From Tetrahymena thermophila SB210 (lineage: Eukaryota > Ciliophora > Oligohymenophorea > Hymenostomatida > Tetrahymenidae), in contig NW_002476421.1 in assembly GCF_000189635.1 (NCBI RefSeq), forward strand, positions 62,001-126,000: DNA of 64,000 nucleotides. The letters are read 5' to 3'. Positions 674 through 57,118 of this stretch are shown in pieces (the stretch's first letter is position 1; the number at the start of each line of letters is the position of its first letter). A program made the translations under genes and the position numbers. Below the pieces are notes generated by a model. It saw nothing but the letters and a program-made list of their open reading frames with translations, was not told where the DNA came from and ran no database searches.

Positions 674-2092
674 TCATTTTTTATTTTTATAATAGTGCTA
701 ATAATTTGCTTTTTTTTCCTTTATTTATTGCTAATGCTGCTTAATTTAATTTTTTTTGAAAACTATTGAGAAAGCATCTAGGGCTCTTTGTCTTGACTCT
801 TCATAGTTAACAATTCTTTTTGGGTAGGTATCTTCATTAAAATCTTCAACCCAAGTTTTAACGTATTTGAAATCAGGATCATACTTTTTTTGTTGCATTA
901 CAGGATCTAATACTCTAATGTATGGGGCTTAGTCTGTTCCTGAACCATTTACCCACTGCCATCCTCCTACATTAGCTGCTAGGTCGTAATCTATTAACTT
1001 TTAGGCAAAGTACCTCTCGCCCCATCTCCAATCGATAAGTAAATTTTTAGTTAAGAAGCTTGCAGCAATCATTCTAAGCTTATTAGGTAAGTAACCTGTT
1101 TTATTTAGTTACCTCATTCCTGCATCTAATAAAGGGTAACCAGTTTTGCCTTCGCACCATGCCTTAAACTCCTCTGGGTTGTTTCTCCATTCTACTTTAT
1201 TATAAGCCTTTTTGAAATTTTCTGTAGCAAATAGAGGAAACTAATCTATCATCATCATAAAGAACTCTCTCCAGCAGAGCTCATCAAGATATTTCTAATT
1301 AAGGAGAACGGCTTTCCTAACAAGCTCTCTGATAGAAACAGTGCCAAATCTCAAATGAACACTCATCAAAGATGTTTTAATGTGAGGGTAATCTCTTGTC
1401 TTATCATAATTTTTAACCAATTCTTCATCTAACTAGCTTGGTGGAAACTCTATTCCTGTTTTTTAAAACCCTATCTATTCTAAAGTAGGAAAAGGAACTT
1501 CTACTTAGCTTTTCCAGTAATTATTCATGAGTGACTCTGATTTGTAACTCTAATAATCAGGTTCACTAAGTAAAGAGATCCATTTTTTACTGAAAGGAGT
1601 ATAGACCTTAAATGCACTTCCATCGTCTTGATGTACTTCTTTAGCTTCAAAAATAACCTAGTCCTTAAAATCTTTGAATCCTATTCCTTTACTGTTTAGT
1701 ATCTCTTTAATCTATTAATCTCTCTTTTTTGCGTATGGTTCATAGTCTCTGTTTGTGAATACACAAGAGATATCAAATTCCTCCATAAGACTCTTGAAAG
1801 CACTTTCTGCATTAGAATGTTTGACAACCATTGTTGATCCATGTTTTCTAAGGTTATCTTACATTTAACTCAAATAATTATGAATGAATTCTACTCTGCA
1901 ATCCTTTTTATCTTCGAGCTCATTTAAAATGTCTTTGTCAAATATAAACAGAGGTACGACAGGTATAGATTCCTTTAAAGCATGATAAAGCCCAACGTTG
2001 TCAAATAATCTAAGATCTCTTCTAAACCAAAACAAATTCACTTTTTGTTTCTTTTGATTTTCACTAAATTATTTGCTATTTAATATATCCAT
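674..2092 (-). CDS. class I CPD photolyase (deoxyribodipyrimidine photo-lyase)
   Basis: A flavoprotein that uses blue light to split cyclobutane pyrimidine dimers in DNA. The frame is intronless and 472 residues long, the usual length for bacterial-type class I photolyases. It opens with [15 protein letters not shown], the N-terminal antenna-binding Rossmann domain. The FAD-binding helical domain follows, with [30 protein letters not shown] and [19 protein letters not shown], then [14 protein letters not shown] with the preceding Asn and the GTDxAPYxR block are typical of CPD photolyases rather than (6-4) photolyases or animal cryptochromes (known from the family). The C-terminus is a short Gln/Lys-rich tail beyond the conserved domain, ending at TGA. 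The start is the first ATG before the conserved WFRRDLR block. A cryptochrome with signalling use cannot be excluded from sequence alone. Confidence 0.93.
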
Positions 2093-3571
2093 TTTTTAAC
2101 TTTGTAGCCTAAAAGCTGTTTTCAGTAGAATTTACAAATTTTAATTATTTCTCATAAGATTATTTCAAAAGATTTTAATAAAAAATTGTTATAAATAATA
2201 CAATTAACTTGATAAATCCAAAGTAATAAATTTACTCGAATATTCTTCACTACTTTAAATTTAAAGTATTCTTATGTTCTACTTATAAATCCATATTTTA
2301 TTAAAAATATTTGAATAAAATTTCATTTTCGTTAAATGAATATTTAATAAATTATATGTTGATAATTATTTTCTTAAATTTAATATTTCGTTTTTAAATG
2401 ATTAAACTCATTTATAAAATCAAAAATTTATAATTTATTTTGCACCTATAGTTTTAATTTTGAATCAGGCAATAAATTAGTTTAAAATAAATTTTTAATT
2501 TACTAAAAATTGTTTTTATCAAATTTAAATACCAGGATTTCAATATATTAAATAAATTAACACCAACCCAGGCTTTATATATATTTTATTTATAAAATAA
2601 GTAAATATTGTATATTACTATTTATCAAAACCCAAATTTTTTATTTTGGATTCTTAAAAATTTTCTGAAAATTGCCTTAATATAAATTAGATTTAATTAA
2701 TGAAAGTGTTCGATATTTAACAAATGATATTATCTTTATATCAAAGCTTATTTGAACTTTTTATCATTTTAGAAAATAGTTTTCAATATTTAATTTACAC
2801 AATAAAATATTTCAACTTTTTATTAGCTTCTCAAAATAAAATTTACAATTCATTTAATATTTAAAATTGAAGAATAATTTTTTTAAATGTGAGAAAGGTG
2901 GAATTAAATTTAATTGCTTGCATCTATTAAATTTTAAAGATCATATGAAAATTTATCTCAACAATTTAAATAAATTAATTAATGTATTAGTAAAAATTGA
3001 ATTTTAAATTCAATCAAAATCTTTAGGTTTTATTGAATTAATCAATTTTTATCATTTATTATATTTATTAAAGTTATTAAGTTTATTTTTGGGAAAGACT
3101 TGTCTTTAGATAGATTTTAAAAAATTAATTAAATATTCATTTTAAAAAATATTTTTTGAATAATAAATATTTGTTTGATTTGATGATTAAAGAATGAATG
3201 AATATTTTTTGTAATTAATTAAATAGATTGAATTATATATATTATTGAAAATAGTGATTTAGGATTGAATGTCTATTATTTGTTAATTAATAATTTGATT
3301 TTTAATTTGAAAAAATTTAATAGAAAAGTATAACTAAATCTTAATTTACTTTGCGAATTTAGATCTTCTAGTTTTAATAGTAGCAAATCTTGCTAACATA
3401 TAAACAAACAAAAAATACATAAATACTACAAAATACAGAATAGAAATCATTTTAAATTTATATAATAAATTAGAAGTTTAGCTTAAAATAATGTAAATAG
3501 ATTAGCGAATATTTAAATGGTTAAGCAGCCATAAAGTCTTGAGTTTAGCAGATAAAATACAAGGGTAAAAT
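2093..3571. other. AT-rich intergenic spacer
   Basis: Very AT-rich spacer between divergently oriented genes (photolyase on minus, CH/ARM gene on plus), so it should contain both promoters. I see only A/T homopolymer runs and no coding frame, repeat or RNA gene that I can support. Confidence 0.7.
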
Positions 3572-9263: not shown

Positions 9264-11520
9264 CGATGATAATAATAATAAAAATAGCAATAATAAAACA
9301 AGTAATAATACAAATATGATTGAACATAGTACAATAAAAAATTTTAGATAAATGAAATTTAAAAAAATGTATTTATTTATTTAAATTATTTAAATGAGAG
9401 ATTGATTCTCTTATCAATTAATAAGTTTATAATAATTCTTAGAATAGAGTTTTAACAATATTTTTAATAAGTGCGCCATTTATCTTATTTGTAAATAACT
9501 ATAGTTTGATAAATTTTGAATGGTATTTCTTCAAAAACTAATTTATATCTCAAAAAATATCAGAAACTAAAAAATAGTTAGTAAATTTTTTATTTTGTAA
9601 CTCTCAACTAATTTAAAAAGTTAGCATTTTTAGTAAATAATTGAAGTAAAAATAATTTTAAAATTATTAAGTTTTAAGTAAATAGATAGATAGATAAATA
9701 AATAAATTATTAATAATAAATCTAAAGCAGTTTCTATTTTTAAAATAATTACTGTACAGTTAAATTTACGTTAAAAAACTTTTTAAGGCTTGTGGTGATG
9801 AATTTCCTCTAAAAGTGAGAAGTCTATTAAAAAGCGATTTATATTAATTTTAAAAGAATTGGAAAATCTAAAATTTTCTGTTAACATTATATAAAACTTT
9901 AGAAAAGAACTATTTTTAAAAATAAGTATGTATCCCAAATAAAAAATTGGTAGAAAATTACAAAAACAAGCCATATATCTATTTTAGAAACTTAGAATGA
10001 ATACTATAAAATTTATTATCAAATGAATAAGATGCTTAAATACTACAAACAATATATATTTAATTAACTTCATTTATATTAATTCTAAATTATCATTGAT
10101 ACAGTTTGAACATAAAAACATAGATTTTGTAATTATAAATTATTTATGTTATAAATAGAAAAATGAAGCAAATATGTCACGAAAAAAAAAAATATTTCCT
10201 TTTATTTATATCAATCTATTTTTGATGTGAATCCATCTATTTTGAATTATTTATACATGTATATTTTAACCTCTAAAAATATATGCAGCACAATTTACTT
10301 TGATTTTGCTATTATTTTAATTCACTATTAAATTATTTATTACTTTGATTATTTTTATACGATAAAATTGGTCGAGTGATTCATTATACGATTTGATTTC
10401 TGTGGTTGTAGCTTTTTAATTAACAATAAGAAATTGATTGATCAGTTACTAGAGCATTTTTAGCAAGGGTAATAATGAGAAAAATATATAAAAAAAAATA
10501 GTTTTTCATTTTTTATTAGTAGAAAAAAAGTTTTTTTTATTGTTTAAATAGCTGTAGTTAATTATTCTACTTTTAGGAAATGTAAAATCAACAAATAGCT
10601 TTAATTTTATTTATCTTTTTGGCATATACAATCATTTACATTTATGGACTCAATGAATATGATTTCATCATCTAATCAATGATTTAGTTATATTATTAAT
10701 TTATTTCCTTTTAAATGTATCTACTTTTAATTTATTTTTAAGATAAATTAACGTCAGAAGGAAAATTAATAATAAATTTTGAATCTAAGCAATTATATTG
10801 GCTAACTAAATCAGATTAAAAAACTGTTCAATTTAGGTAACCAATAAAAAATTTAAATCAATCATAAATCAGCCAATCAATCATTCAAAAAACAAACCAA
10901 CCAATCAATCTATAAGCTGTAGTCTCAATAAAGCCTTTGATTAGTTAAGAAGCTTATGTTATTAAATTTTTACTCATTTTTAGAAAAATTTACTGAATCA
11001 ATAAAATAAAACAATTTATAATCACTTTTATTAAATATTTGATGGAATTCAATATAAAATGGTAAATTAAATAAATAAAAAAATTATTTTTTTTTTCAAT
11101 TTCTTAAATTAATATTCATCTTTTAAAATAAAATAATAAGTAAAAAATCTCAAAAGAAAAATTGCAAAACATTATCACTTCACTAAAAATAGACGTACCT
11201 GATAAAAATACGATTTAAAAAGATAATTCTAGTGATAGTCTTAGTATCTTCTATTTAGTTTTAGATACTTTTTTTAAATAATTATATCAAATGAATTTTA
11301 AAAATTGTTACAATAAAAGCCAAGGAGTTTTTACCCTTCAATAAATATAACAAGAAAACTTTAAAGTATATTTTTGTTACTTCTCTATGATTAAGTAAAA
11401 TATTGAGTTCCAATTGGTTTATATGTTAATCAAAAACTAAAAAAGTATAAATAAATAAATAAATAATAAATTAAAAATTAACATATCAGAAAAAGACTAA
11501 ATAAAACTTGAGAACAACTA
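9264..11520. other. intergenic spacer inside duplication unit A
   Basis: Non-coding, AT-rich, with a short GATA/AATA tetranucleotide stretch near 9680-9710 and CAAT/CCAA-rich runs near 10860-10915. Its sequence from ~9590 on is repeated at 16760-18634 with scattered substitutions and indels. I see no coding frame or RNA gene in it. The part just before 11521 is probably the promoter of the membrane-protein gene, because it is among the better conserved spacer parts between the two copies. Confidence 0.6.
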
Positions 11521-13989
11521 ATGGATCTTTTAAGGTTAGACGTATTTTCTTCAGAATTTTACTTTAATTTAGGCTTCAACCGCTCAAGCAGAAAAGGGAG
11601 CTATACAGGATTACTTTTGTCTTTCTTGAGTGCAGTTACAGTCTTGTCTTACTTCATCTATCTGCTTTATCTTTATTTTAATAATCTAATTGATACAAAG
11701 TATAGGTCGTAAAGCTTTATTACTTAAGATAGAATAGATGTACCACTGCAATAAAATTTGATTGCTTTTTAATTTTAAACAGATGTAAATCAAACAGTCG
11801 AATAGTTATAAGCGAAAGAAAATAAGACTTATCTAGTCTACTATGCAGAATTGCTATATTAATCTGGTACCGATACTTAACTTCTACACCTTGATATTGT
11901 TTAATGTTAAGATCCTGAGCTTTAAGGATTCAATTGCATAGACTATTCTAAAATTAGCAATTACACTCTTTATTTTAACCCAAAAACAACTGAAACATCT
12001 ATGATCATTTTATATTTTTATGGTTGCTTAGATGTAGATAGAGTCAAGAAAACTATTCCTGACAATTGCGCCACACAATAAGAAATAAATGCATTAGTAG
12101 ATTCTCCTTTAATGATATAAAATATCAAATTATACACTCAATAGTACAATACAACATCTAAATAAATACAGACAAATTTCAGAAATTTGTAGAATTATAT
12201 TTAATCGGACTCTTCGCAATAAGTACTTTTAAAGGTGTAAACGCAACAGACCAAAGTAAACCAAGGATTAGTGTTTCAGTCACAAGAATAATTCTCTTCA
12301 CCAATTTCATTCTTACAAAATACTCAAAGTTTTGATAAGGCTGGCTCACTTAAATTAGGTTTTGGACCTTATAATAATATTCTTCTATAACTTGATGAAA
12401 TCATTTTAGAAGTAGAAATTACATATCCTACTATCACAGAAATATTAGCGCTTGTAAATAGTGTTGTAGCTATTTGTATGAGTTTGAAAGTTCTTGGCAG
12501 GCTTCTTTCTTAAAAGCTGATCAAATAAGACTTGATTATGCTCTTTTTGCAAAATTTATTCCAAGATAAATATGAGGAGATTGTAATAAAGAATAAATTA
12601 ATAGATTAAAAAGAAACAGATTCTTTATTTAAAGAGATATAAGGAAGTTCTACCTAACAAAAATAATAATAATAATAATAACAATAATAATAGAGCTGTC
12701 ATATCCAACTTGGAAATTAAACAGATAATTATGAATTAAAACAAAGCTAAGATGAAGGAGGAAAAAAATAGGATTTTGTAGATAATTGCCTTAAAGATTC
12801 AAGGGAACCGTAACATTATAGACTGAATAAAAGATAAGTATAATCTCAAAATTTACAGAAAGGGGTATGTGGATTTGATAAAAAAGAGGATGTTTTGAAT
12901 TTTTAAGATCCCACTGAAGTCAATTAAAATGATGAAGATTTTATAGATATTTTTGTACCTAGTTTTTTGACAAAATCAAGAGAGTCTGTGGAAAAAAGCT
13001 AAAGCATCAACTCAGATCATCCTATTTTAGACATTTAAAACCCTAATTTTTAGGATGAAGTTATAAACCAAAGCGAACTTACAAAAACTGAAGGAAATTC
13101 TCCATATCAAAATAAATAAAAAAAATATATTAAAAAAATATCAAATACTAGTGAAGGCTTGGGAACATTAGAATAAATGATTACTTCACCTAAAACCAAT
13201 AGACCTTTTATTTCTCCAAAAAAAAGCTCTGAATTAATTTCTCTTCCTAGAGAGGAACCTCTCTAATAGTAATTTAAGTAATAACCTTTAAAAAATCCAT
13301 AAAACAACCAGAATATTGAAATGACAACTTTTGAGGAGTAAAGAAAGAAAAAATACAGTCTGGACTTATTACAAAGAATATCTTCTTTTAAATAAAAGAT
13401 TACATAAAATAATGTTATTAAATAATAACTTGAAAAAATTTTATTTAAAAAAAAGTATTTCATTTTAATTAAAATAAATAAAACTTATTTAATTTTTTAT
13501 AAATAAAATAGAATTGTTGATAAAAAAAGTTACCTTTTAAGTTTAGGAATAGAAGATAAATCAATGAAGAAAATTTATGGATAAATGCACAAACATCTTG
13601 ATATCTACTAGATTTATAAGGATCTCATTTTATTGAAGAAAGCTATGATGATTATTTTGGATTAAGAATAATTGGCTGCCCTGCAACTAGTAGGTTGCTC
13701 AACAGAGTTTCTTGAAATTGATGACTTCGATGAAAGCTAAAACATTAAAAAAATGAGTAAATAAATGAATAAATTGATTTATATTTATTAATAAAGAATT
13801 TACTAAAATTTATTAGTTTAATAAAATAGATTGAGTCATTTTGAGAAAAGCCAAGCACTTTCTGATAACTTTGATTTACAATAAGAGTTTATCAAAAACT
13901 TTTATTAAAAATGTAAAGATAAGCCATAAATTTCAGAAATTGATAAAAGAATATTATCATCTATTGTATTCAAAGATAGATCAAGTTGA
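11521..13989 (+). CDS. two-pass membrane protein with long Gln-rich cytoplasmic tail (tandem paralogue 1)
   Basis: A lineage-specific membrane protein; function unknown. Three exons (11521-13454, 13512-13756, 13817-13989) give 783 residues ending at TGA. A short N-terminal stretch (MDLLRLDVFSSEFYFNLG) precedes membrane segment 1 at about residues 30-52. A ~250-residue, probably lumenal or extracellular domain follows, with cysteines in QDPELQGFNCIDYSK and FYGCLDVDRVKK. Membrane segment 2 is at about 306-330 (LVNSVVAICMSLKVLGRLL). The tail of over 400 residues contains a ten-Gln run written with TAA, CAA and TAG near 12662-12690. The C-terminal part is more conserved between paralogues (LKKAMMIILDQEQLAALQ; VGCSTEFLE). 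The first intron could be read through in frame here, but its 1-nt length difference from the sister copy supports splicing. Putative membrane proteins with this layout are common in ciliate genomes. Confidence 0.85.
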
Positions 13990-22699: not shown

Positions 22700-24184
22700 G
22701 TTATTTTATATTTAATTAAATTGCTTTTTTAGAAAAATATTATTTAAATTAAGTTAAATATTTCTCCTAATCTTTCATTCACTAATTTAAATACTTTGAA
22801 ATTATTTCATTAAAATAAATATTATTTACAGTTAGAATACAAAATTTTCAAATTAAAATTGAACTAATTTGGGCATTTATTTATTTTAATCAAACTAATG
22901 AATTAATTTTAATAGATTAATAGCTTAAATAAGAAAAATTAATAAATTTATTGTATAAAATTTTTAAATAATTCAAGTATTTAATTTACAATAATAAAAA
23001 TGAGAAAAATATATAGATATTTGATATGGAATAAATATAAAATGAGATAAATTATTCGTACATTTAATTAATTTTATTTTATATTTTGCATGATGTTTTA
23101 TGAAAAAATTAAAAAATTAAAGTTTAATTAAAAAAATATAAAATAAATTATTAACTTTTTGAAGAAAAGTTGTCAATTAATAAAAAAAAATTAAAAAATA
23201 TAAATTTTTATAGAATATTCAATTGAGAAGGGAGGTTTTTTATACAAAAGGTAGAAAAATAGGTTTTCTTACCAAAAATTTGAAATTTTTTATTAACATC
23301 ATTAAATACTAATTATTAAATATTAATAATGAATAAATTACAAAAAATAAATTTGATATTAATTTAAAACAAATTTTATGCAAATATTTTGTTTACACCA
23401 TCCATAAAAGTTACATTTTTTTAAAAAGTAAGTGAGCTAAAATTATTAAACAACTTAAAACTTTTAAAAGAAGATGAATTTTTTTTATTTTTAAGTTAAT
23501 GGTTTATTATAAGGATGATAATAAATGGAATAAATTTAAGATAGGTGATTTAAAATAATTAATAAATCAATAAATTGTTTTTTTAACTCAAATTTAGCAT
23601 ATTAATTTCATTTAAAAGGAAATTTTAGAATTATTTATTGATTCTAATTTATTTTAATCCTGAGGTTTTTAATAATTTTTTAATTAATAGGAAAATTTTC
23701 ATTAAAAACAAAGTAAGGATTATTATTATTATTCATCACTTACTGAATTAATAAATAAACTTTGAAAATAAATGAAATATTTGTAATTAATATCTAACCA
23801 TATCTTTTATATTACTTTTTAAATTGAATGCTAATTTTATTAATTGATTTTTAATTGATGCAAAATTTAATACTTAATAAATTTAGAGTGAATATAAATA
23901 ATCAGTATTTCAAAAAAGGCTTTAATAAGTTTTTTATTTAAATAAACCTCTACTTATAATTTAACCAATTTTTACATTTAAAATTTTGGAAATAAAGGAG
24001 CTAGAGTCTTTATTTTTTATGTAAATTAATTAATTTCTTTTATTTTTTAGAGAAGTGCTTTTGCTGTTTTAAAATATGTAATTAATTAAATTAAAAATAA
24101 AGTATTAAAAATTTGCAACAAACATTAAATATATAGAAGTAATAATAATTAAAAAAAATTGTACTAAAAATTGTTGGATAGTAA
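22700..24184. other. AT-rich intergenic spacer
   Basis: The first ~375 bases belong to duplication unit B; the rest is unique, very AT-rich and full of short homopolymers. I see no gene or RNA in it. The promoter of the 24185 gene should lie at its right end. Confidence 0.6.
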
Positions 24185-26676
24185 ATGAACCTTTTAAAAT
24201 TTGACCTATTTTCTTCAGAGTTTTAGTTTAATGCAGGCTATAATATGTCAAGGAAAGGAAGCTACTAAGGATTAGTTTTAACTTTTATCAGTCTTTTAAT
24301 AATATTTTCATATTTTGTCTATTTGCTTTATCTATATTTTAATAATTTAATTGATACAAAATACAGATCTTAAAACTTCATTACTTAAGATAGGCTAGAC
24401 GTGCCTTTGTAGTAAAATCTTATTTCTTTTTCTTTTTAGTACACATAAGATCTGACAGTTGATCAGTATTCAGCTGTTATGAATAAAACTTATTTAGTTT
24501 ATGTAGCGCATTTCTATTACCAAAAAAATAACATAACTACAATTATAGATCTTGATATAGTTAAGTGCAAAGATCCTGAGTTGTAAGGATTTAATTGCAT
24601 AGACTTTTCCAAGATAAGCAACAACTACACTCTTTATTTTGACCCAAAATCAACACAAACATCCATGATAATACTATTCTTTTATGGCTGCTTAGATGTA
24701 GATAGAATCAAAAAAATTGTTCCAGAGAACTGTGCTACTTAAGAAGAAATAGATAATTTAGTTGATAATAATCTTACAACGTTAAATATAAAATTATAAA
24801 CTCAATAATTTAATACTACTTCAAAATAAATTCAGACAAATTACAGAAACCTGTAAAATTACATTCAATCAGATTCATCTCAGTAGGTACTTTTGAAAAT
24901 GTAAACTTAAAAGACAAAGGTAAATTAGGGGTTTTTATATCAGTCGCAGTAAACCTTTTCTTCCCCTATCTCATTTATGTAAAATACTCAAAATTTCGAT
25001 AAATAGAAATCCCTTAAAGCTGGAGTAGGACCTTATGATAACATTCTTCTACAAATTGATGAAATTATTTTAGATGTTGAAATTACTTATCCTACCATCA
25101 CTGAAATTTTAGCCCTTGTTAATAGTTTTGCTACAATTTTTCTTTTGCTTAAGGTATTAGGTAGATTTTTTTCTTAAAAATTAATAAAACAAGACATATT
25201 TTTGCTGCTTTTATAAAATTTATTCCAAGACAAATACGAAGAAGTTATAATAAAAAATAAATTAATTGATAAAACAGATGTAGATTAGTTATTTAAAGAT
25301 AGATAAATTAATTCTTTATAGAAGTAAAGTCAAAACACTGTAACTGTATTAAAGCAAGATAATATTTAAGACTAAATAAAAAATTAAGATCATATTGAAT
25401 TAAATTAAAATAATTAAGATTTTTTAGATATTTTTGCTTCTGGTAAATGTAGAAGAAATTCACGAGATTAATTATCTTATAATAAGAATAAATAAGGTTT
25501 AATATGCTAGTAAATTGATTTATAAGCTGATAAATAAACTGATATATAAGATAAAAAAGATATTTTAGATCAAAGGAACTAAAACTATACAGAAGAAGAT
25601 TATGTAGATAACTTCATACCAAAATTTTCAACAAAATCAATAGACTATGTCAAAAAAAGCTAAAAAATGAGCTTGAAATCACCTATTTTAAATCTTCAAT
25701 AATAATAAAACAATTTTAAAGATTAAATTATTAATTAAAGTCTTCTCTCCAAATCAAGTGAAATATCATATAACTTCGCTACCAATAAAAGAATATTAAA
25801 CAAACATTATTCAAATAACTGTGAAACTTTTTCTATATTAGATTAAATGATTTTTTCTCCAAAATTAACGAGCGAAACTAATAAATTTTTATTATCTCCA
25901 AAAAAAAATGCTTGTAAAATTGAATCACTTTACGAATAATCTCATTAAAAAAAACAAAGCATTTAAAAGAATCCAAACTATTCATAAAATCATTCCATAC
26001 AAAATATGATCGCTCTTAACTAGATAGAAGAATAGCCCATTTAAAAATCTAATTTAGATTTATTGGTCAAATTATCTTCTTTCAAACAAAAAATTACAGA
26101 AAGTAAAATAATCTAACGAGTTTTGGCTAAATTATTATTCAAAACAAAGTAATCAAAATATTTATTTGTCAAAAAAAAAAATTTTCAATTTATTTGTATA
26201 AAAAAATAGATTTTGTGGCAAGAAAGTTTACTATGAAAAATTAGGATTTGACATTAACTCGATGGATAAAGTTCGAGATTAAGTTAATAAAAATTTGAAT
26301 ATTTACTAGCTTTACAAAGATATTATATTTCTCAAGAAAGCTATTATGATTATCTTAACTAATGAGCAATTAGCAGTTCTTAATCAAGTAGGCTGTTCAA
26401 CAGAATTTTTATCTATGAATGATACTTTTAAAGACAAAAACTTCACTGAAATGAGTAAGCAATTCTTAAATAATATTTTTTCTTATCTAACGAAATTTAT
26501 TAGTTTAAAAAAGTAAATTGAGTCACTTCGAACAACAATTTGCAATTTCTGAAAACCGTGATTTGCAATAAGAGTTTATTTAAAAATTTTATTAAAAATG
26601 CAAAAAAGATAAACATATATCTGAGATGGATAAAAGAATACTATCTTCTATTATTATAAAAGAGAGGTCTATTTGA
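24185..26676 (+). CDS. two-pass membrane protein (diverged tandem paralogue 3), gene structure uncertain near 26.1 kb
   Basis: Homologous over its whole length to the genes at 11521 and 18635 but clearly diverged. It starts MNLLKFDLFSSEFQFN, has membrane segment 1 at about residues 29-51, the cysteine blocks (DPELQGFNCIDFSK; FYGCLDVDRIKK), and membrane segment 2 followed by LGRFFSQKLIKQD. The tail is Gln/Asn-rich without the long Gln run. The last exons are recognisable (GCSTEFLSMNDTF; the intron at ~26455-26504; end at TGA 26674-26676). The frame of the first exon does not join the next exon in the way the sisters do. Either one base is missing near 26100 relative to the paralogues, after which KIIQRVLAKLLFKTK would match the family, or an alternative donor at 26119 is used. 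No partner gene like that at 21311 follows it. Confidence 0.72.
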
Positions 26677-27157: not shown

Positions 27158-30100
27158 TCAGTTATTTTTAAAGCTTAGTAATTCCCAGTTTTAAGTTTGT
27201 GAGAAATAATACATAAAAATAAATAATTTAGGGAATCTTTCATCAAAATAGTTAAACATATCATCAAGAGTATCTCCTACTATATCTTTAGAGCTCTCTG
27301 AAAGCTCGTGATAATGACTTTTTCTGTTCCTTATTAACTATTTAAAAAATTCATTATTAAAAAAAATCTTATTTGAAAAATTTACTCTGATAAGATCTTT
27401 AACCTATCCATAGTTGTAGAATTTAAACACTTTAGTATCTTAAATAAGACTTTTATCTACATTTTTATCCCATCTATTTCCTTCTAAAACATTCAAAGAC
27501 TTTGCTTATTATTCAATCAAGTCTGAATATTTATTTTCAGTATCTAAATTTATTACAATTATCAATATTCACTAAAATATAAAAGTAAATATTTTGATTT
27601 AAAGTTACCAAATGTTTCTATGTAGTCACTAAATTCGCAAATAAAAGAGAACTTTTACAAGGTATTCCAGAAATATGGATGCTTTAAGCATTCTTTTACA
27701 GTCAGTCTTTTACTTTGATCATTATGAATCATTTTTTGGATAAGGTCTTTCAAGGTTTCATCTTCCATTCTCAAGCTGTACTTAAAATTAGCTATGTTTC
27801 TTTCCCTTTCTTTCCTATTTATTTTTTTAAACATTATTTCTTAATTTTCTATTTTTTTAATGTTATGAAATTACTATTCTCCAAAAGGATGACCTCCTTA
27901 AGTGTATATGTAATAGAATACACAGCCAAGAGAGAAAACATCTGTATTATATGTAAGTGGTTAATTATCTATTTATTCTAGTGGTCTCCATCCCCATGTG
28001 CCGATATCATTCGTGAATATGACATTCGTTTTAGAAATATTCTTTGAAAGTCCAAAATCAGCTAATTTAATTTCTTTGTTGTAGTGAATTAAAATATTTT
28101 CTGGCTTTATATCTCTATGAATAACACCTTAGCTATGCAAATAACTCAATCCTTCTAAGCAGTCTTTAAATGTATTTTTCATAGTTGACTTAATGAAAAA
28201 ATCCGTTTTTATATTATATAAAGCTTTCAAATCCTACTCACTTTTCTTCTTGTTTTTTCTATTTGCATAATCTATTAAATCGCTAATGCTTCCAACACAC
28301 TTTTCTAGTCCAAGAAGTATGTGATCTTTTGTTTCCTCAAAATAGTAGTACTTAATTATATTTTTGTGTTGCAGCTTAATCAACATTTATATTTCCTTGC
28401 TAGCTAAGTCTTTATTATCTTTAAGTAACTATTTGACTGCAATTTCTCTTCCTATATTCACATAAACAATATTTATTAAATCAAAAACTATTTTTTATTC
28501 TTAAATATTACCTTAAAATGTTCCTTCAAAAATAACTGTCCCTTAAGCCCCATACCCTAAAACTTTATTTCTATTAATTTAAAGCCCTTTAAATTTATTT
28601 GCATTTTATTCGCTACTCTCTTGGTTCTTTTTTTCTTATTTATTATTTTGCTCATTTTGTTTTTTAATTTCTTCTTCTTGCTCTTTGCTAATTTTTTCTA
28701 AGACTTTATCAGCTTCTTCTTGGGAGTTTTATTTTTAACTGGAAGATTTACCTCCAGAACGACCACTATTTCTTTTATACATAGAAGTAATTCTTTCATC
28801 TTTTAAAATCAGAATAATAACCAAGATAATTAAGAATGTCAGCAAGAATATTGTAATTTTATTATCCTTAGCAAAATTGAATGCTTAACTAGGAATATTG
28901 CTGGCATTCTAGATATCCTTACTATCAGATATAACTTCAATCATCATTCTCCCCTTTCTGAGGTTATCTATGCAAGTCATAACATCTCTGATATAATTTT
29001 TATCATCAAATTTATCAACACTAAAAATCAATCTTTCTCTGCATTACTTATTTTCTAAACACTAATTCTTTAGCTTTGTAGAAATCTACAATGGTATTAG
29101 CTAAAAGTTGCTCCCTTCATTAAACGAAACTATGCCTTTCTCTCCACCTATTTAAATCTATGTGTTATCCTTGATAAAAAAAAATAAATTTTAATTTAAC
29201 AACAAAAAATCAATAAATAAATCTTACATATTCTGAAGATATGAACGTATTGATAAGAGGATTATGCACTATGACATTCTTTTAAAACATGTTTGTAAAT
29301 CCAACTGCAGAAAAAATAGCAATAATTTCCTAATCTGTTTAGAAATCAACTATTTTAATCTTTGATTGCTTTTGCTTAATTTTCAAATCTTAATGCTAAT
29401 CTTACATAAAAATATAATCCTCATTTTCAGTAAGCTGATTTTTTTATAATCCTTTGTATAAAAAGTCTTCATAAATCATCAAATTAACATCTGTGCTGGT
29501 TAAAGCCCAATTTTCTCTTTTGGTAAAAATATTAAGTTGCTTAATAAGTTTCTAGTTGATATTGATAATATAATGATTTAAATAGTTTTCATAATCATCT
29601 TCAATATCTTCAAATTTCTCTAATTCCCCATTTTCAGGATTGACTAAAAGAATCTTTTCTTTGGTAAATGCAATATATTTTGACTCGTTTCCACTCATTG
29701 GACATATTTTAATAACTTGGTCTATTTCATCTCGCATAATTTTCTAAAAATAATGATATTTATTTTAAATTTAATCAATTATTTGTTTATTGTGTATGTA
29801 CTATTGGAGTAGAATCTGATGCTAAAAAGATAAAATTTCCATCAGAAGAGGGCAAAAAATAGTCGTATCTCTCAAAGTTAGATTCCTAATTTCCTGCAAT
29901 AGAGAGTTCAGTAGAGTGCTGATCTTCCATTCCATAATTATCCTACTATTGTTTTTCGTTATTGAATTTGAGCTCGCTAACAACTACTTTCAGATCTGTC
30001 ATCCAATTTAACAACTTTTTCTTTATATTATAGCTATATAATTTGCCATCATTAGTTAATACCTATCAAATAAAATTTAAATTTGTTATGGCTTATAAAG

Positions 30101-30316
30101 TTAAAACAACAACAATAATGATGAATGAAATAAATGATATACTAGATAGGCATCTTTGTCTACTTTAGAATGAGTTAAAGCCGTCTCAGAACTATTATTC
30201 TGAGTCTAGCTTTTTTTATTGCTATGCTAAGCTAAAGTGCCATTTATTAATAAAAGTAATATAAAAATGGCAATAAGTTTTTTTTACTTTTTGAAGAAAT
30301 TTTAAAAGTTATTCAT
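27158..30316 (-). CDS. IRE1: IRE1-type ER stress sensor: lumenal domain, membrane segment, kinase and KEN RNase
   Basis: IRE1 senses unfolded protein in the ER lumen and cuts RNA through its cytosolic kinase-RNase module. Eight exons: 30316-30143, 30062-29802, 29743-29228, 29169-28512, 28451-27875, 27814-27609, 27543-27386 and 27337-27158. They sum to 2730 nt (909 aa). A signal peptide covers residues 1-30 ([17 protein letters not shown]). The lumenal part has propeller-like strands ([34 protein letters not shown]). The membrane segment is at about 422-440 ([18 protein letters not shown]). The kinase has [22 protein letters not shown] (Asp 650), ADFG (Asp 668), [10 protein letters not shown] and [18 protein letters not shown]. 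The KEN domain (about 800-895) has VKDLIR joined across an intron to [12 protein letters not shown], then FDERFPKL. Tyr, Arg, Asn and His matching human Y892, R905, N906 and H910 are present. The start is the ATG that opens the signal peptide. Confidence 0.94.
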
Positions 30317-46993: not shown

Positions 46994-49648
46994 TCAATAA
47001 CTGCAAAATAATTTTATTGAGCCATCATTATTTATTATTTAGCCCTTTATTTTTTCATCATTTTTGAATTCACCTTCAAATCGACTACCATTATTATAGT
47101 AAATTATTCCTTGGCCTTCTCTTTTGCTGTTAACAAATTCTCCTACATATTTATCTTTATTAATCATCAAAAAAATCCCTTTTCCATGAGCAAATCCATT
47201 TTTAAACTCTCCTTCGTATTTAGCTCCATTAGAATAATATAGTATTCCTTTTCCATCTCTTTAATTATCTTTGAATTCTCCTTTATATTCATTTCCATCA
47301 AAATAATAAAATATTCCCATGCCTTCTTTTTTGCCGTTAATAAATTCTCCTACATATTTATCTTTATTAGCCATAAAAAGTGTCCCTTTTCCATGAACAA
47401 GTCCGTTTTTAAATTCCCCTTCGTATTTAGCTCCATTAGAATAATATATTATTCCTTTTCCATCTCTTTTATTATCTTTGAAATCTCCTTCATATCTATT
47501 TCCATCAAAATCATAAAATATTCCTATTCCTTCTTTTTTGTTCTTAATAAATTCTCCTACATATCTATCTTTATTGGTATGAAAAAAAGTCCCTTTCCCA
47601 TGAGCAACTCCATTTTTAAACTCCCCTTCATATTTTGCTCCATCAGAATAATTTAGTATTCCTTTTCCATCTTTTTTATTATTTTTGAAATCTCCTTCGT
47701 ATTTTTTTCCATCAAAATAATACAATATTCCCATGCCTTCTTTTTTGTCCTTAATAAATTCTCCTACATATCTATCTTTATTGGTATGAAAAAAAGTCCC
47801 TTTCCCATGAGCAACTCCATTTTTAAACTCCCCTTCATATTTTGCTCCATCAGAATAATTTAGTATTCCTTTTCCATCTCTTTTATTATTTTTGAAATCT
47901 CCTTCATATCTATTTCCATCATAATAATACAATATTCCCATACCTTCTTTTTTGTTTTTAATAAATTCTCCTATATATTTATCTTTATTACTCTTCAAAA
48001 AAGTCCCTTTTCCATGAGCAAATCCATTTTTAAACTCCCCTTCGTATTTAGCTCCACTAGAATAATATAGTATTCCTTTTCCATCTTTTTTATCATCTTT
48101 GAAATCTCCTTCGTATCTATTTCCATCAAAATAATACAATATTCCCATGCCTTCTCTTTTGTTGTTAATAAATTCTCCTACATATTTATCTTTATTAGCC
48201 ATTAATAAAGTTCCTTGCCCATGGGCAAATCCATTTTAAAATTCCCCTTCGTATTTAGCTCCATCATTATAATATAAAATTCCTATTCCATTTATTTTAT
48301 CGTCTTTGAACTCTCCTTCGTATCTGCTTCCATTAGAATATAATAATATGCCTTAGCCATTTCTTTTACTATACTTATACTATCCTTTATGTAACTCTCC
48401 GTTTGCACAAATTAGGGTTCCTTTACCATCTGCAAAGCCATTTTTGAAATTTCCTTCGTATCTATTTCCATTAGAATAATACAAAATTCCATAACCTTCT
48501 CTCTTATCATTTATGAATTCTCCTTCATATCTATTTCCATTAGAATAGCTTAAAATTCCTTTTCCATGCATTTAATTACTTTTCCACCACCCTACATAAC
48601 TATTTCCATTCTTAAAGGACTAACATCCTAAACCTTCTTTTTAATCATTTCTCCAAGAGCCATAATATGAAATATTTAGTTCATGACTTTAATTATATAT
48701 TTAGGTTCCTAGACCATGTCTTATATTATTTTAAAGCTCTCCTTAATATTAACCATCTATATTTTAAATATTATTTTAAAGTATTATGGATATAGAATCT
48801 AATTAGTCAATTGAATCAATAAGCTTTAGTCTCTACTCGGGGTCCTTATGCATCATTTTAAATGCAATTTAAAGAAGATCTTCAAATTCAGGAGATTTTA
48901 TATGCTCGAAGTTACCATTTTTTAAGTTTAAAATACTTTAGTAATTGCAAAAATCTACTCTACATAATTATAATAAAATCGAGCCTAATGAGTAAATATC
49001 AGATTCTAATTTAATATTTCCTTCATCTTACTCTAAAGGTGAATAAAAATATGTTAACCCGTTATCCAAAGTTTGTGATTTATCCAAGCTTAGTAGTTTT
49101 GAAAGACCAAAGCCACAAATCTAAAGGTTTAAATTATTTCCTATCAAAATATTTTAAGGTTTAATATCGCTATGAATTAAATTTTTTGAATGAATTTCAA
49201 TCATCCCTTAAATTAAGTTTTTCATAATTTTAATTATTTCTCCTTTTGTTAATTCCTACTACTGAAGATATGTTGATAGATCTCCAAATGTACAAAATTC
49301 AGATACTAGAAATAATGATTCATTAACATCATCGTAAATTTAGGTGTGGCATTTGTTAACATTTTGGTGATTAAATTATTTAAAATTATTAAATTCTTTT
49401 TAAACTTCGTTTAAAGAAGCTTTGTCTTGTGTTATCAATTGTTTTATTGCAACAACATTATTATTCGAGGTATCTAATACTTAAAAAACTAATCCAAATT
49501 CTCCACAATTAATCAATTTTTAAACTAAATATTATTTAGTTTTAAGAAAATCTATTGCCTTCAAAATTGTTTTACTATAAATTTAACTTTTCTTAGATTC
49601 TAAAAATTATTTGATACTCTGTTCACTTAAAGGATCAAATATATCCAT
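46994..49648 (-). CDS. pseudokinase fused to about 25 MORN repeats
   Basis: Intronless frame of 884 residues. Residues ~40-290 are a protein-kinase domain: glycine loop NCGEFGLV, VVAIKQL (Lys 69), LIHSDIKPQN (Asp 161) and SDIYSLGSILLQL. The DFG metal-binding Asp is replaced (CGFG, Gly 179) and the APE motif reads PLEQ, so catalysis is doubtful. From about residue 300 to the end there are ~25 MORN repeats of 23 residues (consensus RYEGEFKNGKxHGKGxLYYSNG). From ~48200 down to ~47150 they are organised as a 69-residue, 207-bp super-repeat of three MORNs present about five times. Adjacent copies are almost identical in DNA. MORN arrays bind membranes or scaffold cortical structures in protists. 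Kinase-MORN fusions occur in ciliates and apicomplexans; the role here is unknown. Confidence 0.92.
47142..48200. repeat. 207-bp tandem super-repeat within the MORN gene
   Basis: The landmark CTCCTACATAT(T/C)TATC recurs near 47142, 47349, 47556, 47763, 47970 and 48177, a strict 207-bp spacing equal to three 23-residue MORN units. The copies around 47580-47680 and 47787-47887 are virtually identical over about 100 bases, which indicates recent duplication or gene conversion. Confidence 0.92.
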
Positions 49649-50595
49649 AGTTTTAATAAGAAATTCTAACTTCTATATTCTAACTAATTAATTTTTATAT
49701 TCGATAAATAAATAATTATTGCTATATCTTTATATTTAATTTTTGATTTTTATTAAATCTACAGGAAATTTATTGTAAAAGAATACTTTAATTAATTAAT
49801 TCCTTACAGTAAGTACATTTAGAATCAATTATTTAACATTTTTTTTATTCAGTCTTTGTCAAAAATTAAAAAAATTAAATGACAAAAAAGTTACTAAAGG
49901 AAATTTGGAAAGGTTAATTCTTAAAATTAATTATCTACAATCATTTACTATTTAAAACAAAATATTAACACATATATCCATAATAATCAATAATATTTAC
50001 TAACTATATGATTAAAAAGATATATTATATCTACTCAAGGCATTTAAAATTTTTATATTAGATGTATAATAAATTAAAAATCTATTTTAAATTATAAATT
50101 TTATATCTAAAGTTACATAATTAAATAAATAAAATAAAGATTTTATTTATGATAAAAATTAAAATAAAATCATTTATTTCTTTAATTAATCTAATTTAAA
50201 AATTATTAAATTTTTATTTTTCCATACCCACATGAATTCAATATCAGGAAGTGCTAATTTTAAATTTATTTTAGTTATTTCTATTTTAAATTCATTTATT
50301 TGTTTAAGCTATTTATAAATTTTTAGTTTTTTAATTAATTAATTAATTATTTATCTAAAGATACATTGATTGTATTTATGCTTTTATTATTTTTTGTAAT
50401 TAAATGTATCTATCTTTTTTAGAAATATCAAATACAATTAATTTAAGTAAATTAAGAAGAGACCAAGTAGAAATAATAAATAACATAGGATAGAGTTTAA
50501 AAGGAAAAGATATAAATACAGACAATAGATTAATAAATAATACAAGATTTTATAAATATTTTCAGTGAAATATTTTTCAAAAAAAGTTAATAAAA
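49649..50595. other. AT-rich divergent promoter spacer
   Basis: Lies between two divergent genes. No feature is recognised beyond AT-rich low-complexity sequence. Confidence 0.6.
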
Positions 50596-53714: not shown

Positions 53715-56092
53715 ATATTTTCAAATAAACTTATTACCTACATTAAAAAAAAATATTTCAATATGATTTTATATTATTTGTTTTATTTTGATAGAATAAG
53801 TAAAGCTAAGAAAGAGATGTTCATTCAAATTATAAATGTAATTTATATTTTTTTAAAATTATTTTGCATTTATAAGTAATTATAAAATTATTAACTACCT
53901 TAAAATGATATTAATATTTTTTTTAATTCATAGTTGTAATTATTCTAAATTAAAATTTTAATTCAAATTTAGCAATTTTAAAAAAATAAATAAACAAACA
54001 ACTTTGATAAAATACTTTTTAAAAATTATTTTACATTTATAATTGATAATAAATTTATTATCCAATTGAAAATAAAATCGGTCTGTTTTTTAAATTTAGA
54101 GAATCATAATTGTAATTATTCTCAATTATAATTGTAATTCAAATTAAGCAATTTAAAAAATAAATAAAGTACTTTTTGAAAATTATTTAACATTTATAAA
54201 TAATGATAAAGTAATTAGCCAATTTAATATGAAATTGGTCTATTTTTTAAATTTAGAAAATCATAATTTAATGTATTAAACATTTTGGTTAGCTATGATT
54301 ATGCTTCTTAACTTTGTTTTTATAACTACTTTAATAACAGGATTGGTAAGCAACTAAAATTTTAATTCAAATTAAGCAATTTTATAAAGATTTTTAAAAA
54401 ATAAATAAAGTACTTTTTAAAAATTATTTTACATTTATAATTGATAATAAAATAATTATCTTAAAATGAAATTGGTGTTTTTTAAATATAAAAATATCAT
54501 AGTAATTTGTAGATAATTTATATTTCTAAACAATAAATAAATTAGAGAATCATAATTGTAATTATTCTCAATTAAAATTTTAATTCAAATTAAGCAATTT
54601 TATATTTATAATTAATAATAAAGTAATTAACCTATTTGAAATGATATTAGCCTTTTTTTAAATTTAGAGAGCTATTATTTAAATTATTCTCAATTAAAAT
54701 GTAATCCAAATTAAAACAATTTAAAAACTATTTTACATTTATAATTAATAATAAAATATTTAACCTATTTGAAATAGCATAAGTACTTTTTTACATAAAG
54801 ATATTCAGTCATCTATCATTTTAATTATTTTCAATTAATAAAAATTCAAATGAAGCAATTTTATTTTAATAAACAAAAATAAACAAGCAATATTGATCAA
54901 AATTTCGAATGAAATATTGATAAGAAATTTTAATAAAATTACTTTTTAGTTAAAATGTATAAAAAATTTATTAAGTTGCGATTTTAAATACTTATGCATC
55001 TTCACTTTGATTTATTATTTTTTTGCCAATATAACCAGAATAAAATTATTTTTTAAACTAAAATAAAAAAATTTATTTATTTTTTTTTAGATTAAAAATT
55101 GTTAACAAAAAATTCTATTAGAATTAAAAAAAATATATGTAAGATTTTATAATTTTTTTTGAACAGCATTGTTATTTAAATTTCTTAAAATAGAGTAAGC
55201 TTGAATAAGATTTACATAATAATATATATATTTTTTGTTATTAAATAATATCAATTACAATTTATCTTAAAAAAGTGGAAATTAAATAATTCATTTATCA
55301 GTTTCTAATTAATTCATGGAAATTTTTTAATTCTTATATAATTGTCAGCTTTTTCTTTCATAAATTGATACTTTCATATTGTTAAGTAAATTATATTTAA
55401 GATAACAAATATTTTAGAAGTCTTTATTTTTGTCGTTAGCAATTCGTTCAACTTGCTTGTCTTATTTATTATACATTAAATTAATGGACATTCTTTTGAA
55501 ATCGTTAGGTTAATGATAGTAATTTATTTAATATATCAGTTTTTACTCCTTAATTTTTTATTTGATTTTATTTTTAATAGGAGCATATAATTAGATTAAT
55601 TTTAAATTAAGAGATTTTAATTACGTCAAATTATTAAGATTTCTACAAACAATTACGACGATATCCTTCAAATTTGTAAAAAAAAAGTACTTTTGATCTT
55701 ATTTAGTAATTCAAAAAATAATAGGCATATCTTTGAAAGTTTTTTAATTCATATGCATAGTTTTATAGAAAATACTTAGATGTTTTTTTAGTTAAGTCTG
55801 CATAAAGCGTGAAATCTTTATGAAATCTGCTAATAAATTCCGAATTATGATTGAGTATTGTTGAAAAAATTTGATACAGTTGAGAATAGGAAAAAAGAAA
55901 GAGATAATCGAAAACTTAAGAGCTTCTATGAAATTAATAAAAGAATTTTGAATTTGAATAGAAAGATATAAAAGAAAATAGAGACAACTTATTTTATTTT
56001 TTGAGCATAAATACACAGAGAAATTTGAACAATTAATTATAAACAATTTAATAAAATATTAATAATTAAATAAATAAATAAGTTTTTGATCG
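53715..56092. other. intergenic spacer containing a degenerate repeat field
   Basis: About 2.4 kb without a supportable gene. The left half (about 53850-54860) holds a degenerate tandem repeat, listed separately. The right half is AT-rich with slightly richer composition near 55600-56040, where short open frames exist on the minus strand. None of them resembles a protein. Confidence 0.6.
53850..54860. repeat. degenerate tandem repeat, unit roughly 160-200 bp
   Basis: A block reading approximately ATTTACATTTATAATTGATA, a run with TAATTA(T/G)CCAATTTGAAAT, TTTTTTAAATTTAGAGAATC, ATAATTGTAATTATTCTCAA and TTCAAATTAAGCAATTT recurs about six times between 53850 and 54860. Substitutions and small indels separate the copies. 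Copies start near 53855, 54030, 54185, 54420, 54600 and 54735. Drift suggests an old array. It is non-coding in all frames. Confidence 0.75.
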
Positions 56093-57118
56093 ATGAAACG
56101 TCAAACTATCTTTATTGTCGCTGCCTTATTGTCAGCTGCTTTAACTGGTTTCTACACCTATGAAGCCTTAAAGCACAAGGAATTCAAGTACTCCGACAGA
56201 TTGAAATAACTCGCTGAAGAAGTCAACAATGCTAACACTACCTGGAAGGCTGGTGAGAACATTAAGTGGATTAACGCTGATATTGCTGGTGTTAAGGCTC
56301 ATTTGGGTGCCTTAGAAGGTGATAACGGTGAAAACCTCCCTGTTTCTAATGCTGTTAAGGCTGATTTACCCACTGCTTTCGATGCCAGATAATAATGGGG
56401 TGACAAGTGTACCTCCTTATGGGAAGTTAGAGACTAATCTAACTGTGGTTCTTGCTGGGCTTTCGGTGCTGTCGAATCTCTTACCGATAGACATTGCATC
56501 CACCTTGGTCAAGACATCAGACTCTCTGCCTAAAACATGTTGACTTGTTGCGCTACCTGCGGTTAAGGTTGCAACGGTGGTTATCCCGCTTCTGCCATGA
56601 GCTACTACGTCAAGACTGGTTTGGTTACTGGTGATTTATACAACACCACTGGTTGGTGCCAAGCTTACAGCTTCGCTCCTTGCGCTCACCACGTCGATAC
56701 CCCCCTCTATCCTGCTTGCACTGGTGAATTACCCACCCCCAAGTGTGCTAAGACTTGCGACTCTGGTTCCGGTTAAACCTACACCGTCCACAAGGGTTCC
56801 AAGGCTTACTCTGTTGGTAAGACCCAAGAAGCCATCATGACTGAAATCTAAACCAACGGTCCCGTTGAAGCTGCCTTCACTGTTTATGAAGATTTCTTAA
56901 ACTACAAGAGCGGTGTCTACAAACACGTTACTGGTAAGGCTTTGGGTGGTCACGCCATCAAGATTGTTGGTTGGGGTGTTGAAAACAATACTCCTTACTG
57001 GATTGTCGTTAACTCTTGGAACCAAACCTGGGGTGACAATGGTACCTTCAAGATCTTAAGAGGCAAGAACGAATGTGGTATTGAAGCTCAAGTCGTTACT
57101 GCTCTCCCCTTAAACTGA
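56093..57118 (+). CDS. cathepsin B-like papain-family cysteine protease
   Basis: A lysosomal or secreted cysteine protease. Intronless frame of 341 residues with an N-terminal signal peptide ([16 protein letters not shown]) and a propeptide of about 80 residues. The mature enzyme begins near [15 protein letters not shown]. The catalytic Cys is in [16 protein letters not shown], His in [12 protein letters not shown] and Asn in [13 protein letters not shown]. Cathepsin B identity comes from CCATCGQGCNGGYP and the occluding loop [13 protein letters not shown], whose two His residues give cathepsin B its dipeptidyl-carboxypeptidase ability (family knowledge). Base composition is strikingly richer in G+C than the rest of the window. 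Codons are strongly biased (GCT, GTT/GTC, ACC, AAG, GGT), the pattern of highly expressed ciliate genes. The start is the ATG opening the signal peptide. Confidence 0.96.

What the first reader, a model, noticed from the sequence alone, without database searches (positions are those of the whole stretch)
27158..30316. Complete IRE1 homologue in a ciliate, with RNase catalytic residues kept
After splicing seven introns the gene gives the full IRE1 order: signal peptide, beta-rich lumenal domain, one membrane segment, kinase with HRD and DFG, and a KEN RNase domain. The four RNase residues (equivalents of human Y892, R905, N906, H910) are all present. The intron that splits the KEN domain removes an apparent insertion exactly between VKDLIR and [10 protein letters not shown] ciliate with reassigned stop codons and a possible IRE1-spliced or RIDD-type target set would be an interesting branch of the unfolded protein response.
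Basis: partly seen in the sequence, partly recalled or inferred. Interest (0 to 1): 0.75.

Follow-up and report, generated by a model that had tools for sequence, protein, structure and literature searches.

The report
Ciliate gene for stress sensor IRE1
The gene encodes an ordinary-looking, apparently complete IRE1, the enzyme that senses misfolded protein in the endoplasmic reticulum and answers by cutting RNA, in a ciliate; it is a member of an ancient known family, and what it cuts in ciliates is the open question.

Summary
On the minus strand, window 30316-27158, eight exons joined across seven GT-AG introns give a 909-residue IRE1. It has a hydrophobic N-terminus, an ectodomain, one membrane segment, a kinase (Pfam E 3.9e-52) and a Ribonuc_2-5A/KEN domain (E 4.1e-28). 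The best solved relative is yeast Ire1 (E 3.2e-66). All four RNase residues are kept, and removing each cytosolic intron raises the score to yeast and human IRE1. It is the only KEN match found in the 101-Mb genome, very probably Tetrahymena thermophila. No profile recognises the ectodomain; its support is weak motif matches. IRE1 in ciliates is expected from published surveys. RNase-selectivity residues are of the promiscuous fission-yeast/human type. No RtcB was found although a control RNA enzyme was, and none of nine bZIP loci carries a pair of classical cleavage loops. mRNA decay (RIDD) is therefore the likelier output; splicing is not excluded. No transcript data were available.

The parts
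27158..30316 (-). IRE1 gene, 8 exons, 909 aa, TAA/TAG read as Q, TGA stop
   Evidence: Gene model; Pfam; PDB; score tests
30143..30316 (-). Exon 1: signal-peptide-like hydrophobic segment and start of ectodomain
30063..30142 (-). Intron 1, 80 nt
29802..30062 (-). Exon 2: ectodomain, including most of the first IRE1-like motif (residues 56-80, whose first three residues are in exon 1)
29744..29801 (-). Intron 2, 58 nt
29228..29743 (-). Exon 3: ectodomain core (172 aa)
   Evidence: fold job never finished
29170..29227 (-). Intron 3, 58 nt
28512..29169 (-). Exon 4: end of ectodomain, membrane segment (about residues 420-440), Lys/Glu/Gln-rich linker, start of kinase
28452..28511 (-). Intron 4, 60 nt, in frame; lies just before the catalytic-lysine strand IAVK
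   Evidence: retention costs 30 score units
27875..28451 (-). Exon 5: kinase core with IAVK, HRD, DFG, HPFG
27815..27874 (-). Intron 5, 60 nt, in frame
   Evidence: retention costs 29-30 score units
27609..27814 (-). Exon 6: kinase C-lobe and start of KEN; holds interface positions S785 and E789
27544..27608 (-). Intron 6, 65 nt; if kept, truncates the protein at 812 aa
27386..27543 (-). Exon 7: KEN domain first half, Y840
27338..27385 (-). Intron 7, 48 nt, in frame, between VKDLIR and LIRNRKSHY
   Evidence: retention costs 25 score units
27158..27337 (-). Exon 8: KEN domain second half with R853, N854, K856, H858

Best explanation
This is an IRE1 orthologue of the ciliate, and the only KEN-domain gene found in its genome. 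Shown by sequence: a kinase and KEN RNase with the catalytic residues kept, preceded by one membrane segment and an ectodomain that follows a signal-like segment. Inferred from the IRE1 family: unfolded protein in the ER lumen makes the ectodomain cluster, the kinase trans-phosphorylates and binds nucleotide, and back-to-back dimers activate the KEN RNase, which cuts RNA at the ER surface. Inferred with less certainty: because its dimer-interface residues are of the promiscuous type (S785, E789, K856 at Sc 988/992/1059), its main output is cleavage and decay of ER-bound mRNAs (RIDD) rather than strict splicing of one transcription-factor mRNA. The 0.9 confidence is for an active IRE1 orthologue; for RIDD as main output about 0.5.
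For: Pkinase 517-777 E 3.9e-52 and Ribonuc_2-5A 783-907 E 4.1e-28. The 16 best of 2655 matching PDB sequences (60 shown) are IRE1 (E 3.2e-66 to 1.8e-59), and the next kinase is at 3.5e-21. 149 of 391 aligned residues are identical to yeast Ire1 and 127 of 352 to human. Each of the four cytosolic introns, if kept, lowers the score against yeast (617 to 587, 588, 494, 592) and human (559 to 529, 529, 426, 534). One KEN match in 101 Mb (2 candidates scored). The interface pattern x, D/E, K/R is the one reported for 175 of 230 IRE1s including human and for S. pombe Ire1. No RtcB was found, while the RTC control rang at 1e-43. None of nine bZIP loci holds two IRE1-type loops.
Against: The ectodomain gives no IRE1 match in Pfam, PDB or NCBIfam; against a profile of two human lumenal domains hmmsearch and hhalign give E 0.013 and 0.12 for a single comparison. 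Three of six hand-picked motif tests were at chance. The residue at Sc R1039/Hs K888 (R1039 is described as involved in RNA substrate binding) is V836 here. The promiscuous interface also occurs in human IRE1, which splices as well as decays, so it does not show RIDD alone. A tRNA endonuclease match implies tRNA splicing and hence some RNA ligase that I did not find. No RNA evidence.
Confidence: 0.9

Rival explanations
1. The same IRE1, but its main job is non-conventional splicing of a bZIP mRNA (HAC1/XBP1/bZIP60-like), with the ends joined by a ligase other than RtcB; membrane-anchored bZIPs would be the natural substrates, as in plants (plant case recalled).
For: Four of nine bZIP loci encode a bZIP followed by a hydrophobic membrane-like segment in the same open frame. 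Peptidase_M50 (site-2 protease family) was not detected (the eukaryotic enzyme may be too divergent for that search), so a non-proteolytic way to free them would be useful. A tRNA endonuclease match is present, so a ligase probably exists.
Against: No bZIP locus has two CNGNNGN loops on perfect stems of 4 bp or more (3 single hits in 9 loci). One twin G|C hairpin pair in L004 is at chance level: 14 pairs in 128,000 nt of the window (0.109 per kb) against about 6.9 kb scanned in the four membrane-bZIP loci. RtcB not found.
Confidence: 0.3
2. An IRE1-derived kinase-RNase whose ectodomain senses something other than unfolded protein, because the ectodomain has diverged beyond recognition.
For: No profile or PDB match to the ectodomain; neutral strand/helix composition.
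Against: Two ectodomain places match IRE1 lumenal motifs in the right order, with 4-5 of 1000 shuffles as good in three of six tests. Lumenal domains of IRE1 are poorly conserved in general: the human IRE1 alpha lumenal domain finds that of yeast (2be1) only at 5.8e-7 over 85 residues.
Confidence: 0.12
3. A decayed copy or an ordinary kinase with a chance KEN-like tail.
For: Nothing beyond the absence of RNA data.
Against: Frame intact over eight exons; the catalytic kinase and RNase residues tested are kept; KEN E 4.1e-28.
Confidence: 0.02

Closest known systems
Saccharomyces cerevisiae Ire1 (PDB 3fbv)
   Same: Kinase-KEN order and the four RNase residues; 149 of 391 aligned residues identical
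   Different: Interface residues S785/E789/K856 instead of E988/K992/Y1059, the stringent pattern; V836 for R1039
Human IRE1 alpha
   Same: Same order of domains; Y892, R905, N906, K908, H910 all kept; placed by PMC8104961 in the same promiscuous interface class; 127 of 352 aligned residues identical
   Different: Ectodomain not recognisably similar by profile; V836 for K888; no RtcB found in this genome
Schizosaccharomyces pombe Ire1 (RIDD only)
   Same: x, D/E, K/R interface code that confers promiscuous cleavage
   Different: Its decay-only output is shown by experiment in S. pombe, not here
RNase L
   Same: Shares the kinase-homology plus KEN module (stated in PMC8104961)
   Different: Here there is a membrane segment and a kinase with IAVK, HRD and DFG, and no ankyrin family among the 14 Pfam matches

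Membership tests
IRE1 | Protein kinase domain with catalytic Lys, HRD, DFG | tested here: met
IRE1 | KEN (Ribonuc_2-5A) domain directly after the kinase | tested here: met
   783-907, E 4.1e-28
IRE1 | RNase residues Y, R, N, H | tested here: met
   Y840, R853, N854, H858
IRE1 | Signal-like N-terminus and single membrane segment between ectodomain and kinase | tested here: met
   Hydropathy only: segments about 11-30 and 420-440; no signal-peptide predictor was available
IRE1 | IRE1/PERK-type lumenal domain | tested here: inconclusive
   No match; weak; 3 of 6 motif tests with 4-5 of 1000 shuffles as good, 3 of 6 at chance; fold job not finished
IRE1 | RNase activity and activation by ER stress | not testable with these tools
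   needs expression and assay
S. pombe-like promiscuous IRE1 RNase (code of PMC8104961) | Any residue at Sc 988, D/E at 992, K/R at 1059 | tested here: met
   S785, E789, K856; rule
HAC1/XBP1-type splicing pathway | bZIP mRNA with two CNG|CNGN-like stem-loops | tested here: inconclusive
   0 of 9 bZIP loci have a pair (about 3.1 kb each, sense strand, perfect stems only); bZIP genes missed, and parts beyond the loci, were not scanned
HAC1/XBP1-type splicing pathway | RtcB or Trl1 ligase | tested here: inconclusive
   RtcB 0 matches with a working control; Trl1 domains PF09511 and PF08302 rang nowhere, so uninformative; PF09414 0 matches

The most novel reading that the evidence does not exclude
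Ciliates run an IRE1 branch that only degrades mRNA (RIDD), without a spliced HAC1/XBP1 partner, in cells reported to lack PERK; transcriptional answers to ER stress come from membrane-anchored bZIP factors. Alveolates would then be split in a complementary way: Toxoplasma and Plasmodium with PERK and no IRE1, ciliates with IRE1 and no PERK.
Probability: 0.3. Interest if true: 0.55.

Novelty: new member of a known kind. Interest (0 to 1): 0.32.

Why it matters
IRE1's two outputs, splicing and decay, are best known from yeasts, animals and plants. A ciliate that can be handled genetically, with one intact IRE1, reported to lack PERK and without detectable RtcB, would let one ask directly which output came first. 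As a gene discovery it is modest, because IRE1 is already traced to the eukaryote ancestor.

Tried and rejected
Ectodomain homology by phmmer on PDB, NCBIfam, Pfam, a two-sequence human profile with hmmsearch and hhalign, and shuffled Smith-Waterman (8 of 500 shuffles as good for IRE1 alpha, 32 of 500 for beta, the two best alignments being short and in different places): not decisive.

IRE1 cleavage loops in bZIP loci: one search scanned four of nine loci in the wrong orientation and is superseded. Hairpins with G|C in the loop in the four membrane-bZIP loci: L003 1 against 1.7 in shuffles, L004 5 against 4.1, L010 2 against 2.3, L008 9 against 5.0 (overlapping entries counted separately; six distinct places). 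The L004 pair at about 1849 and 1870, in the membrane codons, looked attractive but such pairs are expected at 0.109 per kb.

PF09511 and PF08302 rang nowhere, so they say nothing.

Literature on IRE1 in ciliates: I judged by titles and starts of abstracts in the listings (18 of 18 listed; 25 of 57; 10 of 10; 12 of 12; 8 of 8; 2 of 2; 7 of 7; 10 of 99), and opened passages or sections of six papers (PMC3218828, PMC10428556, PMC3710099, PMC3084755, PMC11596743, PMC8104961). I saw no experimental study of IRE1 in a ciliate there; PMC10428556 (passages) discusses ER stress in Cryptocaryon along the animal pathway, and PMC11596743 (passages) says nothing on ciliate IRE1. The Tetrahymena genome paper is not held.

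Species check: PDB searches with two neighbouring genes did not help. The TERT exon of this genome has 66 residues in a row identical to PDB 2b2a; that 2b2a is T. thermophila, and that the telomerase RNA in L011 equals that of T. thermophila, are recalled.

Fold of exon 3 alone was unfinished at each of 20 collections, the last being, so no structural result exists.

Full report
What is there. Translation of the minus strand with TAA and TAG as glutamine, and removal of seven GT-AG introns, gives one open frame from an ATG at 30316 to a TGA ending at 27158, 909 residues. The coding sequence uses 27 TAA and 17 TAG as Gln against 14 CAA and 3 CAG, as expected for a Tetrahymena-type code. Introns are 48-80 nt and 81-90% A+T against 72% in the exons.

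Is it IRE1? Pfam finds a protein kinase at 517-777 (E 3.9e-52) and Ribonuc_2-5A at 783-907 (E 4.1e-28). Of 2655 matching PDB sequences (60 shown) the sixteen best are IRE1, from 3.2e-66 to 1.8e-59; the next, a calmodulin kinase, is at 3.5e-21. Identity is 149 of 391 aligned residues to yeast and 127 of 352 to human. IAVK, HRD and DFG are present, and human Y892, R905, N906, H910 correspond to Y840, R853, N854, H858.

Are the introns real? Three of the four cytosolic introns are multiples of three and could have been read through. Keeping any one of the four lowers the alignment score with both yeast (617 to 587, 588, 494 and 592) and human (559 to 529, 529, 426 and 534). With the KEN intron removed, VKDLIR is followed by LIRNRKSHY and aligns without a gap to yeast and human. 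The three ectodomain introns have no such homology test; they rest on frame and splice signals. RNA evidence was not available.

The ectodomain. It lies between a hydrophobic N-terminus and a membrane segment near 420-440. No Pfam, NCBIfam or PDB sequence matched it as IRE1. Two human lumenal domains used as a profile gave E 0.013 (hmmsearch) and 0.12 (hhalign) for a single comparison. Six motifs chosen by eye from human IRE1 alpha and beta were slid along it. Both versions of the first motif fit best at residues 56-80 (5 of 1000 shuffles as good), and the beta version of the second at 168 (4 of 1000), in the right order; the other three were at chance. So the lumenal domain is likely but not shown. 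A fold prediction of exon 3 was still unfinished at the end.

The genome. The window lies in a 101-Mb assembly of 445 contigs. A TERT exon in it is identical over 66 residues in a row to PDB 2b2a, recalled to be T. thermophila TERT. One KEN match was found. RtcB gave no match, although the same kind of search found an RNA-cyclase family (RTC) at 1e-43, a tRNA endonuclease at 7.8e-11 and the KEN domain itself. PF09414 and Peptidase_M50 gave no match; divergent eukaryotic members could have been missed. Two ligase families, PF09511 and PF08302, rang nowhere and say nothing.

Substrates. bZIP_1 gave nine places and bZIP_2 five, all five among the nine. In four of the nine (L003, L004, L008, L010), picked by eye, a membrane-like segment follows the bZIP in the same open frame (in the whole-protein scan L010 passes the curated cut-off only for bZIP_2 and L004 only for bZIP_1). 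The other five were not assembled across introns nor tested for membrane segments. On the sense strand of all nine, strict CNGCNGN loops with a stem of 3 bp or more occur once and loose CNGNNGN loops with a stem of 4 bp or more three times, never two in a locus. A twin G|C hairpin in L004 is at chance level.

Selectivity. PMC8104961 (passages and one section read) shows that residues at Sc Ire1 988, 992 and 1059 matter for selectivity: E/D, K/R, Y is the stringent pattern; any residue, D/E, K/R the promiscuous one. It reports the second in 175 of 230 orthologues including human, and the first in 33. The ciliate has S785, E789, K856, the promiscuous pattern. This permits RIDD; it does not exclude splicing, since human IRE1 does both. 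One departure is V836 at the position of Sc R1039 / Hs K888.

What is known. PMC3710099 (passages) traces IRE1-like kinase-KEN proteins to the last eukaryotic common ancestor. PMC3084755 (passages with Table 1) finds PERK and no Ire1 in Toxoplasma and Plasmodium. IRE1 in a ciliate is therefore expected. I did not see this particular gene described in print in the listings, which cover open-licence papers only and of which 25 and 74 were shown in part.

Verdict. A bona fide, probably active IRE1 orthologue; a new member of a known kind. Its output is most likely promiscuous cleavage of ER-bound mRNAs, possibly RIDD only, which is the part worth testing.

Noticed in passing
L003, L004, L008 (reverse), L010 (reverse): Four bZIP proteins with a membrane-like segment after the zipper, ATF6/bZIP28/bZIP60-like in layout, in the same genome. 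Possible transcriptional arm of the ER stress response.
   Followed up: partly
own genome: No RtcB match although tRNA endonuclease and RNA-cyclase families are found; the tRNA ligase of this ciliate remains unidentified here.
   Followed up: partly
11512-13986 (+) and 23828-26233 (+): Two long ORFs without Pfam match, 385 of 693 aligned residues identical: paralogues about 10 kb apart.
   Followed up: partly
46997-49858 (-): Protein kinase fused to MORN repeats, 17 matched stretches.
   Followed up: no
677-2164 (-): DNA photolyase/cryptochrome family gene.
   Followed up: no
56090-57115 (+): Papain-family cysteine protease gene in the most GC-rich 2-kb step of the window.
   Followed up: no
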